From Pseudovirgaria hyperparasitica (Eukaryota; Ascomycota; Dothideomycetes; Acrospermales; Acrospermaceae), in contig NW_022985550.1 of the NCBI RefSeq assembly GCF_010093815.1, forward strand, positions 1,191,074 to 1,255,073: DNA of 64,000 nucleotides, read 5' to 3'. The first letter of the stretch is position 1. Each line of letters begins with the position of its first letter. The notes under the pieces are model-generated. The model ran no database searches. It worked only from the letters and a program-made list of their open reading frames with translations, and had not been told where the DNA came from. The position numbers and the translations under genes are program-made. This document shows positions 61,099-64,000 of this stretch, in pieces.

Positions 61099-63264
61099 AT
61101 GTCTAGTCCATCTTCACCACTCCATGAGCTATCGTCAGAAAGGAACACCAGTACCAGTGCCAACAGTACCAGTGCTAAGGATCGTAAGAGGAGGAGAATC
61201 TACAGGGCTTGCGATTACTGTCGTTTACGAAAATCACGATGTGATGGCAAAATGCCTTGTACTGGTTGCAAGGCCATTGATCATGGTACTATGCTTTACT
61301 ACTGGATTCAGACGTCTGCCACTAACGAGCAATTGTAGAATGTTCGTACAGTGATTCTTTGAGGAGTCGGCGTGGAGGTCCACGCTACATTGAAGAACTG
61401 GAAGGAAAGATCCGCAGTTTGGAACATGCCCTGCAGACTGTCAATGCCGAGGAACGTATCGAGAATGCACATGTCAGAGCGCTTCTGGTCGAGCAGTTGA
61501 AGGATGCCGGTGGTCCTTGGAATTCAAAGTCCTCGGAATATCTCAGCAGATCTTCGGAGAATAGTCCCACGAAAGTTGTCGATGAGCTACCCGAGGAGGG
61601 CGAAGAGCTGCTCGAGACCATGATCGAGGTGAGCATCAATGGCTGCGGACTGACGCTCAGGACTGATTCCTGTCTACAGGCTACTGGTATTCTCAATATT
61701 GACATCGTTGCTACTGAGTCTGAGTATCGCGCCCAGATGCTTCCAGCTGCATACACGGGCAGTCGGCCGGAGTCGTTCGTTCGTTCTTCGCCTTTACCTC
61801 CAGACTCGCCACACTTCAGCCACCCTCAACTTGGAATTTCTCCGAATTTCTCGAGTGGTAGCTACGTAACATCGCTACCTCCAAAGAAGACTGCAATGTT
61901 TTTCATAGATGTGGCACTGAATCACCCATGCTGCTTGATGAACTTTGTCCATCGCCCAACACTCAATGAGCTTCTTGAGGAAGTGTACGAAGACAGTGAC
62001 ATGCCTATGGGGTCTCAGACCGCTACTGCTCTCATTTATGGTTTCTCTGCCATTGGAGCTCTTTTCTCGGGTAGTCACTTTGGTGCAGACTCCGAAGAAT
62101 GCACACCACCGGGGTAATTTAGATTTTCGCTTTCTATTTGGACCTTACTGATGAGCATCCGTGTAGATATCAATACTTCCAGACCTGTCAAACAATGATC
62201 GATCCACTCGCTTGTAACGACATTGTTACCATGCAAGCTTTGATATGTGCAATCCTGTATATGCAAGGCACGGGCATGGTGACGCGATCGTATTCGACGA
62301 TCTGCGCTGCTACTTCCGCTGCTGTCCGTATGGGCCTGCATCGCGCTTCACCGCCTAGCAGTCTTGATGCAATTCAACTTGAGCTCCGAAAGCGTGTCTT
62401 TTGGGTCTTGAGAACCATGGACACTTATGTCACTTCCATGCTTGGCTTTCCTCGGACGCTCGGAGAAGAAAATGTGGATCAAGAGATGCCAATCGCTCTA
62501 GAAGATCATTTTATCACAACTTCCGGCATCATCGCAGAGGGGCAATCAAGCAGTATACAGTCAAACATGGGCCCAGTCAACGCCCATACTCGGCTGATCA
62601 AGATCATGGCGCAAACCCTTCGCCAGATCTATCCGTCGAAGCGACCATCTAGCTCTGTAAACTTTGCATATGGTGTCTCTCCAACGAGCGTGTCTCAGAT
62701 TGAATCTGAGCTTGAGCAATGGTTTGAAGATTTGTCCCGATCCGACAACACTTCTGTTCCGTCAAGCTCTTTCGAGATACGGTAAAATTACATCTATCTT
62801 GTATGGTTAGATTACAGCTAACAGTTTTTAGAACTCAGCTCCTCCTTCGCATGGCGTATGGTCACGTTCAGATGGTCCTCTATCGCCCCTTTCTGCACCA
62901 CATCTTGAAGCCACGGTCTGAGGGTAACATCCAACTCCGATCCTATGCGTGTGCTTCTGCATGTATCAAAGCTGCAATGCAAATTGTTTGGTTGGCTGAA
63001 GAGTTGGATTCACGAGGGCTGATCCACGAGGCGTACTGGTTCACTTCTTACATCACGTCGTTTGCTGTGACCACGCTCTACCTATTCATCACCACGGCAC
63101 GCGATGATCCAACAAGAGAGGAGACACGACACACTGCAGAACGCGGTCGTGCCATTGTCTACAAACTGGCCAAGAGCAACCCTATGGCGGATTGGTGCCT
63201 TTCATCTCTCAACGCGAGTCCTTTTCTCCAGGACCAGGAATTCTACTTCAATCCTCCTAGTTGA
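61099..63264 (+). CDS. Zn(II)2Cys6 regulator with fungal-specific TF domain
   Basis: Five exons (61099-61285, 61339-61628, 61680-62113, 62167-62781, 62832-63264) with introns of 53, 51, 53 and 50 bp give 652 residues to the first stop. The zinc cluster is CDYCRLRKSRCDGKMPCTGC + KAIDHEC, with CX2CX6CX5CX2CX6C spacing completed across intron 1. A coiled linker (RYIEELEGKIRSLEHALQ) follows. The middle homology region typical of fungal TF domains runs from about 250 to 560 and includes YSTICAATSAAVRMGLHRAS and KRVFWVLRTMDTYVTSMLG. The 51 bp intron has no stop and is a multiple of three. The frame continues without interruption past TGA (63262-63264) to 63732. The TGA is followed by CTAG, and the extension looks like an activation tail. 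Either readthrough or a 48 bp intron (63260-63307) may extend the protein; see findings. Targets are unknown. Confidence 0.9.
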
Positions 63265-63732
63265 CTAGCCGGGGAGAGTCTGAAGTCACAGCAAGCAGCT
63301 GATGTAGGTCCATCGCACGGTGCTACAAGTAGCTCGAGCTCGAGCACCAATGCAACTCCGGATTACCGGCACAGCATTACTGATGCATCGCATCTTCGTT
63401 TCCACCCACGAGCGCCCGACCCACAACCACAAATGCAGCTGCCCTTCTCAGTCTCTCCCATCGATGACCATGCAACTGGCATGGCCATTCCAGTTACTGC
63501 AAGCGGCGAATCTCTCTACGCCATGCCTTATGTACCTCTATCGCCATTTGAGACCAAGGAGAGCACGTCCTACTTTGACGTGCAAAACACGAATTCGGAA
63601 CCTCATGATTCGCATATGTCGACGCCACAATTTGGTCACTACTATGGACCAGATGTGGCCAGTCAAATGGCTTGGGATCCATCAACCACCCAGCCAATGC
63701 CTTTCAAACTGGATCTAGACCTGATTAGTTGA
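63265..63732 (+). other. in-frame 3' extension of the C6 regulator
   Basis: After the TGA the same frame is open for 155 sense codons to a TAG-free end at TGA 63730-63732. It is Ser/Thr/Pro/Gln/His/Met-rich with phrases such as MPYVPLSPFETKE and MSTPQFGHYYGPDVASQMAWD, composition seen in activation domains. A frame this long and this well composed is unlikely to be chance in a 3' UTR. It could be reached by stop readthrough (UGA-CUA-G) or by a 48 bp intron at 63260-63307 with donor GTTGAC. Confidence 0.7.
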
Positions 63733-64000
63733 TATCGTATACGATGGCATCAAATCGCGCAGTGCGCATTTGACGCTTTGCACCTGTTTTCAGTATCATG
63801 CAATATTTTTGCCGCGCAAAAAGTCCTGGTTGTGAGCGACATGTTATTTTGTACGGGATCAAGTTTATGCGTCTTGTTACTTTTCAAATCACTTGTTTTT
63901 GTTTTATTATATATAGATCTGCTACGACTCTCCTTGAGATACCCACCAACGCAGCACGGATCGGCGTTTAGCACATGACCATATCTGTCATTATGTATTG
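63733..64000. other. 3' flank of the last gene to window end
   Basis: AT-rich, about 270 bases, with nothing recognisable beyond a likely 3' UTR. The window ends here. Confidence 0.5.

What the first reader, a model, noticed from the sequence alone, without database searches (positions are those of the whole stretch)
63262..63732. UGA-CUA-G stop context with a 155-codon in-frame extension in a C6 regulator
Seen: the stop is TGA immediately followed by CTAG, and the same frame stays open for 155 more codons with activation-domain-like composition. Known: UGA followed by CUA is the best-characterised high-readthrough context in fungi and animals, used in some fungal glycolytic enzymes to make peroxisomal isoforms. 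Inference: this regulator may exist as a 652-residue short form and an ~808-residue long form with an added tail. A rival model is a 48 bp intron at 63260-63307, in phase, with a poor GTTGAC donor. Either way the tail looks like part of the gene.
Basis: partly seen in the sequence, partly recalled or inferred. Interest (0 to 1): 0.72.

Follow-up and report, generated by a model that had tools for sequence, protein, structure and literature searches.

The report
Leaky stop in a fungal regulator
A fungal gene regulator ends at a stop signal of a type that ribosomes often slip through, and the reading frame runs on for 155 more codons that look like a real activation tail, so one gene may make a short and a long regulator, although an unusual intron could do the same.

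Summary
A C6 zinc-cluster regulator (61099-63264, 652 aa) ends TGA-CTAG, and its frame stays open for 155 codons to TGA 63730-63732. The tail looks coding: exon-like GC (0.52, then 0.41 after the second stop), coding-like codons overall, and a composition like the spliced-on tail of a paralogue in this genome.

It missed two better splice rivals. At the exact place and phase of the paralogue's last intron stands GCGAGT, a GC-type donor (in-phase GC-AG intron 63214-63291). Four bases on, GTCCTT gives in-phase GT-AG introns, one of typical length (63218-63268, 51 nt). Both would delete coding-like sequence, and neither has a good branch site. Yet a genuine GAPDH intron of this genome scores as low as the second, so scores alone do not exclude it.

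In about 235 kb, the four other coding-like extensions of at least 155 codons each have a canonical intron across the stop; this gene has none.

Best reading: UGA_CUAG readthrough (about 0.44). Rivals: splicing 0.35 (GC-AG 0.20, GT-AG at 63218 0.13, 48-nt 0.02); recent nonsense or assembly error 0.15; chance 0.06. No orthologue or RNA data were available.

The parts
61099..61285 (+). exon 1; zinc-cluster (C6) DNA-binding domain
   Evidence: gene model; PF00172 match at C2:1252277-1252348 = window 61204-61275, E 9.2e-6
61286..61338 (+). intron 1, 53 nt (GTACTA...TTGTAG), shared in place and phase with the C8 paralogue
61339..61628 (+). exon 2
61629..61679 (+). intron 2, 51 nt (GTGAGC...TACAG), not in the paralogue
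61680..62113 (+). exon 3
62114..62166 (+). intron 3, 53 nt, shared with the paralogue
62167..62781 (+). exon 4; Fungal_trans regulatory domain
   Evidence: PF04082 E 1.2e-23 in window:62123-62785
62782..62831 (+). intron 4, 50 nt, shared with the paralogue
62832..63264 (+). exon 5 up to the first stop
63262..63268 (+). TGA-CTAG: UGA stop in the high-readthrough context
   Evidence: motif as described in passages of PMC4207609 and PMC5868278
63265..63732 (+). in-frame tail, 155 codons plus second stop TGA (63730-63732)
63214..63291 (+). rival: in-phase GC-AG intron, donor GCGAGT at the homologous place and phase of the paralogue's last intron, acceptor CACAG, no CTNAY branch site in the region scanned
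63218..63268 (+). rival: in-phase GT-AG intron, 51 nt, donor GTCCTT, total score -2.34, no CTNAY branch site in the region scanned (acceptors 63298 and 63307 are also in phase)
   Evidence: donor -7.24 bits, total -7.58
63897..63915 (+). T-rich then TATATA stretch resembling a fungal 3'-end signal, about 165-180 nt after the second stop; of the motifs scanned only one TATGTA (63529) occurs in the tail

Best explanation
The gene encodes a C6 zinc-cluster/Fungal_trans regulator. Most ribosomes stop at UGA (652 aa: DNA-binding and regulatory domains, little tail). A minority decode UGA in the leaky UGA-CUA-G context as an amino acid and continue for 155 codons, adding a Ser/Pro-rich, acidic, Cys-free tail that probably works as a disordered activation region. 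Shown: the context, the open frame, a tail that looks coding overall, no canonical intron across the stop. Inferred: that the stop is kept in the mRNA, that ribosomes read through it, that the tail activates transcription, and that the ratio of forms is used for regulation.
For: TGA-CTAG exactly. UGA followed by CU is sufficient for readthrough in Ustilago maydis; A at +3 helped in human cells and G at +4 is noted as frequent and favourable (PMC4207609, passages). UGA_CUAG human genes tested in reporters all gave notable readthrough (PMC5868278, passages). Tail codon score +15.3 bits, per codon above 123 of 170 true-frame pieces and reached by 9 of 132 open wrong-frame ORFs. GC 0.521, as in exon 5 (0.514), falling to 0.41 after the second stop. 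The paralogue carries a 290-aa tail of partly like composition: Pro 11.7 against 11.6%, Ser+Thr 20.3 against 23.2%, but Gln+Asn 15.9 against 7.7%. Bases on both sides of the TGA fit a coding model better than an intron model (4.97 and 4.75 bits). The four other coding-like extensions of at least 155 codons in the survey each have a canonical intron; this one has none.
Against: A GC donor hexamer at the ancestral intron site is an uncomfortable coincidence: such sites occur at 112 of 34,314 phase-0 exon positions. The GT-AG candidates at 63218 (-2.15 to -2.37) score no worse than a genuine GAPDH intron of this genome that also hides a TGA (-2.40). The base before the stop is U (AGT TGA), associated with lower readthrough in mammalian cells (PMC12233894, passage). 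No downstream RNA structure beyond chance (z -0.42 and 0.82). The first 60 tail codons score only +2.06 bits, the last 95 +13.21. A synonymous-codon score did not separate the tail from wrong frames (above 286 of 375 wrong-frame and 27 of 75 true-frame pieces). The tail has no convincing relative in the genome and does not align significantly with the paralogue's tail. No orthologue was found to test conservation.
Confidence: 0.44

Rival explanations
1. GC-AG intron 63214-63291 (78 nt, phase 0). The ancestral last intron is kept with its GT donor changed to GC; splicing removes the TGA and joins ...CLSSLN to QAADVGPSHGATSSS.... GC-AG introns are often alternatively spliced (recalled, not tested), so intron retention could give the short form and splicing the long form.
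For: The paralogue's last intron (GTAAGC...GCTAAT...TAG) lies five residues after the conserved Cys, phase 0; the window gene has GCGAGT at the same distance and phase. The other three paralogue introns are all kept in place and phase. Donor positions +3 to +6 score 2.91 bits here and 3.4 with Fusarium frequencies. Raw intron score 2.67, without a penalty for GC, is inside the range of this gene's own introns (0.63-4.25).
Against: C at donor position 2 is 1% in Fusarium core genes (PMC5677156) and GT-AG is 98.7% in fungi (PMC7072748) (passages). No CTNAY branch site in the region scanned; only CTGAA, 8 nt from the end, closer than the branch-like motifs of the 10 homology-supported introns (10-15 nt by my reading). 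78 nt against a median of 52.5 in 34 modelled introns. Sequence it would delete is coding-like: 63220-63261 scores above 60 of 64 open intron frames (14 codons compared with 12-codon frames). The typical-length choice, acceptor 63268 (55 nt), is out of phase and meets TGA four codons on (read).
Confidence: 0.2
2. GT-AG intron from donor 63218 (GTCCTT), most simply 63218-63268 (51 nt), giving ...CLSSLNA|TGESLKSQQAADVG.... It removes the TGA in phase; the ancestral intron would have shifted its donor by four bases.
For: Typical length, equal to the paralogue's last intron (51 nt), near the homologous place. Total -2.34 and donor -2.03 are no worse than real introns of this genome: the GAPDH intron GTGGGA...TTAAC scores -2.40 and the paralogue's first intron has donor -2.25.
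Against: Phase 1, not the paralogue's phase 0. The donor lacks G at +5 and gets -3.95 bits with Fusarium frequencies. No CTNAY branch site in the region scanned; TTGAC lies only 4 nt from the end. Acceptors 63298 (81 nt) and 63307 (90 nt) are longer than typical. It too would delete coding-like sequence. None of the 34 modelled introns scores below -2, but they were selected by score.
Confidence: 0.13
3. Recent nonsense mutation in this strain, or a base error in the assembly: the true protein is about 808 aa and the TGA is not used for regulation.
For: The tail is still open and coding-like, as expected for a very young lesion; a single base difference would suffice.
Against: A random lesion would fall in TGA-CTAG with probability of roughly 1 in 500 (inference: about half of lesions TGA, times 1 in 256), so the context favours readthrough.
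Confidence: 0.15
4. The tail is an untranslated chance ORF in the 3' UTR, or part of a separate small gene.
For: 155 open codons arise by chance in 84 of 20,000 simulated sequences of this composition, and 9 of 132 open wrong-frame ORFs score as high per codon.
Against: Both would have to happen together at TGA-CTAG. The GC drop and the 3'-end-like elements lie after the second stop. Between the second stop and 64826 no ORF of at least 70 codons scores above 0.8 bits.
Confidence: 0.06
5. One reading: GT-AG intron 63260-63307 (48 nt, donor GTTGAC).
For: In phase and removes the stop.
Against: Donor -7.24 bits, below all 34 modelled introns and all 10 homology-supported ones (lowest -2.25); -8.41 bits with Fusarium donor frequencies. 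Its CTNAY motif, CTGAT, lies 5 nt from the end; several AGs precede the acceptor; GC 0.54.
Confidence: 0.02

Closest known systems
UGA CUA(G) readthrough of fungal metabolic enzymes (Ustilago maydis and others; PMC4207609, passages read)
   Same: Fungal gene, UGA followed by CUA and G, in-frame extension.
   Different: In the passages seen those extensions carry cryptic peroxisomal signals; here the extension is 155 residues of activation-like tail on a transcription factor. No conservation or reporter data here.
Human vitamin D receptor VDRx (PMC5868278, passages read)
   Same: Transcription factor with UGA_CUAG and a C-terminal extension (67 residues; 6.7% in reporters).
   Different: Animal nuclear receptor; its extension lowers the response; evidence for selection on it is weak and limited to Old World monkeys and apes.
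Drosophila Vvl/Dfr POU factor (PMC8417969, abstract read)
   Same: Readthrough adds a tail with disordered regions and stretches implied in activation to a transcription factor and changes target expression.
   Different: Animal gene; readthrough shown in vivo and conserved; its stop context was not compared here.
C8 paralogue in the same genome (L018, 971 aa as spliced here)
   Same: 40% identity over the Fungal_trans region, three shared introns, long Ser/Pro-rich C-terminal tail.
   Different: Its tail is joined by an ordinary GT-AG intron (GTAAGC, branch CTAAT), so no stop lies between domain and tail in the spliced model.

Membership tests
C6 zinc-cluster / Fungal_trans transcription regulators | Zn2Cys6 binuclear cluster near the N terminus | tested here: met
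   PF00172 at window 61204-61275, E 9.2e-6, 31.5 bits against a cut-off of 21
C6 zinc-cluster / Fungal_trans transcription regulators | Fungal-specific regulatory domain PF04082 | tested here: met
   84 bits against a cut-off of 23
UGA_CUAG stop-codon readthrough genes | UGA directly followed by CUA(G) | tested here: met
   window 63262-63268
UGA_CUAG stop-codon readthrough genes | In-frame extension with coding character | tested here: met
   155 codons, +15.3 bits; but the first 60 codons alone are weak (+2.06) and the synonymous-codon test was not informative
UGA_CUAG stop-codon readthrough genes | Stop is in the mature mRNA (no intron removes it) | tested here: inconclusive
   No canonical GT-AG intron; a GC-AG candidate at 63214 and weak GT-AG candidates at 63218 remain
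UGA_CUAG stop-codon readthrough genes | Motif and frame conserved among orthologues | not testable with these tools
   No relative found in viral contigs or genome contigs (one of two scans used); the G000 outputs say it has no relatives among the whole genomes held
UGA_CUAG stop-codon readthrough genes | Measured readthrough product | not testable with these tools
   needs reporter, peptides or ribosome profiling
GC-AG spliceosomal introns | GC donor with otherwise strong consensus | tested here: met
   GCGAGT, 2.91 bits over +3 to +6
GC-AG spliceosomal introns | Branch site at the usual distance and intron-like composition | tested here: inconclusive
   no CTNAY in the region scanned and interior coding-like; but a homology-supported GAPDH intron also lacks CTNAY there and has TTAAC, and minority motifs are published
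GT-AG spliceosomal introns | GT donor, AG acceptor, in-phase removal of the stop, branch site | tested here: inconclusive
   63218-63268 meets the first three; donor weak (-2.03) and no CTNAY branch site, but within the low end of real introns here. 63260-63307 fails on its donor (-7.24)

The most novel reading that the evidence does not exclude
A fungal zinc-cluster regulator whose activation tail is gated by translation: UGA-CUA-G makes a short form without the tail by default and an activator by readthrough, so anything that alters termination fidelity (oxygen-dependent ribosome hydroxylation, release-factor level, drugs) would alter its target genes directly.
Probability: 0.3. Interest if true: 0.72.

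Novelty: new member of a known kind. Interest (0 to 1): 0.43.

Why it matters
Readthrough of transcription factors has been shown in animals (Vvl/Dfr, VDR). My searches with regulator terms found no fungal case: searches returned 0 papers, and none of the 8 titles listed is one; nor did I see one among the titles listed (15 of 29 listed). The library lacks most subscription papers. If real, a fungal case would extend UGA_CUAG use from enzyme targeting to gene regulation in a tractable kingdom and would give annotators a class of truncated regulator models to re-examine. If a non-consensus intron is right instead, it is a gene-model error that predictors could easily make, and a caution for readthrough scans.

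Tried and rejected
48-nt GT-AG intron: judged very unlikely on donor and branch site. GT-AG choices with donor 63218: I first dismissed them on score, then found on rechecking that a GAPDH intron supported by homology scores as low (-2.40), so they are kept as a rival. All 72 in-phase GT/GC/AT-donor combinations of 40-150 nt with donor 63100-63264 were scored and the best 25 printed. RNA stimulator downstream: folding no better than shuffles. Selenocysteine: not pursued; a PMC4207609 passage says fungi lack the machinery. Tail relatives: one weak hit, C3:1621874, E 0.003, inside a 578-aa ORF that does not look like a transcription-factor tail, taken as chance. Orthologue searches in viral and prokaryote collections gave nothing, as expected for a fungal gene. 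NCBIfam and PDB sequence searches were uninformative. A more distant family member on C3 (L019) does not resolve the last intron. My first intron collector was too strict (1 unique row printed of 28 candidates) and the second too noisy (41 clusters, 16 with a canonical donor); the EM model replaced them. Positive control for readthrough in this genome: the GAPDH and PGK stops are UAG, so neither is UGA-CUA; GAPDH reaches SKL by an alternative acceptor or past its UAG. There is no species-specific proof of UGA-CUA use. No structure prediction was run.

Limits of the background set: 47 sources, 234,552 bases; 15 overlapping loci dropped beforehand, but some overlap remains (for example L012/L035 and L017/L041, seen), so counts such as 6 of 105 are not fully independent. 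The intron model was learned by EM from about 45 expected introns and leans to consensus; the 34 'modelled' introns were selected by score, so their minimum is not a fair floor. The introns of the window gene and the paralogue were placed by hand from open frames and homology. The comparison sets 14-codon pieces against 12-codon intron frames. The output was cut. The confidences are rough estimates of mine, not tool output.

Full report
WHAT IS THERE. The window lies at C2:1191074-1255073 of a 35.0 Mb genome in 59 contigs; the intron-bearing zinc-cluster/Fungal_trans genes show that it is fungal. The gene at 61099-63264 has five exons and four introns of 50-53 nt. It encodes a zinc cluster (PF00172) and the Fungal_trans domain (PF04082, E 1.2e-23). 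Its stop is TGA at 63262-63264, followed directly by CTAG. The same frame is open for 155 more codons to TGA at 63730-63732.

IS THE TAIL PART OF THE GENE? Probably yes. In a codon model trained on 96 long ORFs of this genome the tail scores +15.3 bits against wrong-frame reading. Per codon that is above 123 of 170 true-frame pieces of the same length; 9 of 132 open wrong-frame ORFs of at least 100 codons reach it. An earlier, smaller model agreed (above 368 of 375 wrong-frame pieces and 40 of 75 true-frame pieces), but a test on synonymous codons alone was not informative (above 286 of 375 wrong-frame and 27 of 75 true-frame pieces). The signal is uneven: the first 60 codons +2.06, the last 95 +13.21. 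GC is 0.521 in the tail and 0.514 in exon 5, then 0.41 after the second stop; of the 3'-end-like motifs scanned, one TATGTA lies in the tail (63529) and the rest at 63897 and beyond. The composition (Ser+Thr 23.2%, Pro 11.6%, no Cys, net charge -11) partly resembles the tail of the closest paralogue, which is richer in Gln and Asn (15.9 against 7.7%).

THE PARALOGUE. A gene on C8 (L018; 971 aa as spliced) is 40% identical over the Fungal_trans region. Three of its four introns match introns of the window gene in place and phase. Its fourth, GTAAGC...CTAAT...TAG, follows D-R-C-S-V-T-L-A, and the next exon carries a 290-residue tail. So a long tail after the regulatory domain occurs in this family; in the window gene it lies beyond a stop.

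SPLICING RIVALS. An EM model of introns from 47 sources gave donor consensus GT-A-A/C-G-T and a CTNAY branch site in 66%. It is very unlikely. But at 63214, five residues after the conserved Cys and in phase 0 just as in the paralogue, stands GCGAGT. With the in-phase acceptor CACAG at 63291 this makes a 78-nt GC-AG intron with a raw score of 2.67 (no penalty for GC), inside the range of the gene's own introns (0.63-4.25). A GC site with so strong a donor context occurs at 112 of 34,314 phase-0 exon positions, so the coincidence counts. A second candidate is GT-AG from GTCCTT at 63218, most simply 63218-63268 (51 nt, in phase, -2.34); its score is poor but a genuine GAPDH intron that also hides an in-frame TGA (L024, GTGGGA, branch TTAAC, joining GPLKG to YLGYTEDE) gets -2.40. 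So the score does not exclude it.

AGAINST BOTH SPLICE RIVALS. GC donors are rare: C at the second donor position is 1% in Fusarium core genes, and GT-AG is 98.7% in fungi. Neither candidate has a CTNAY branch site in the region scanned; by my reading the 10 homology-supported introns all have a branch-like motif (CTNAY, CTAAA or TTAAC) 10-15 nt from the end, while 63214-63291 has CTGAA at 8 nt and 63218-63268 has TTGAC at 4 nt. The longer choice 63218-63298 (81 nt) has CTGAA at 15 nt, with another AG in between. The bases around the TGA fit coding better than intron: 63220-63261 4.97 bits, above 60 of 64 open intron frames; 63265-63306 4.75 bits.

HOW UNUSUAL IS IT? In 234,552 bases, 105 stops follow a coding-like run; 6 have an in-frame extension of at least 155 codons. 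One (L019) is not coding-like (1.6 bits). The other four besides the window gene have a canonical GT-AG intron with a branch site that removes the stop (2.99-5.62); for the window gene the best GT-AG score is -2.15 without a branch site. The GAPDH case above, with an 85-codon extension, is the exception that weakens this control. The survey shows two things: introns are the usual cause of this picture, and this gene lacks the usual intron. Two of the 105 stops are TGACTA, this one and one with a 35-codon extension that scores -3.1. Some loci overlap, so these counts are not fully independent.

CONTEXT AND MECHANISM. PMC4207609 (passages) reports that UGA followed by CU is sufficient for efficient readthrough in U. 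maydis, that A at +3 helps in human cells, and that G at +4 is often present. PMC5868278 (passages) reports notable readthrough for the human UGA_CUAG genes tested, including the transcription factor VDR at 6.7%. PMC8417969 (abstract) shows readthrough of the Drosophila factor Vvl/Dfr adding a tail with disordered regions and activation-like stretches. I therefore propose that the short form (652 aa) is the default product and that a minority of ribosomes add the tail, which probably activates transcription. The readthrough itself, the function of the tail and any regulation are inferred. Efficiency may be modest: the base before the stop is U, linked to lower readthrough in mammalian cells (PMC12233894, passage), and no downstream RNA structure beyond chance was found.

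WHAT COULD NOT BE TESTED. No orthologue was found in viral contigs or genome contigs, and no fungal collection was available. Conservation of the UGA and of the tail, the key evidence, is missing. GAPDH and PGK gave no species-specific control for UGA-CUA.

VERDICT. Observation confirmed; interpretation partly supported. Readthrough about 0.44, GC-AG intron about 0.20, GT-AG intron from 63218 about 0.13, recent nonsense or sequence error about 0.15, chance or separate ORF about 0.06, the 48-nt intron about 0.02. These are my estimates, not tool output. As a readthrough gene it would be a new member of a known kind, notable as a fungal transcription factor.

Noticed in passing
L024 (C13 GAPDH), stop TAG at 2144, TAA at 2189: The GAPDH gene of this genome has a cryptic peroxisomal signal: past its UAG stop the frame ends in SKL, and an alternative acceptor 39 nt downstream (intron end 2153 instead of 2114, in phase) also skips the stop and ends GQIQDTTLSSKL. 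This fits the fungal pattern of peroxisomal glycolytic isoforms made by alternative splicing or readthrough mentioned in PMC4207609.
   Followed up: partly
L025 (PGK), end of the coding region: The PGK stop is embedded in a GTAAGT donor-like sequence (TCAAGTAAGTAG); none of the 18 alternative acceptors printed gave an SKL end.
   Followed up: partly
window 63308-63718, +: A second frame over the tail is also open for 136 codons, but it scores as non-coding (-6.3 bits).
   Followed up: yes
window 11954, - strand; L013 1929 -; L021 5237 -; L043 1990 +; L024 1867 +: Five places where an in-frame stop appears to lie inside a multiple-of-three intron between coding-like frames (modelled); naive readthrough scans would flag them.
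   Followed up: partly
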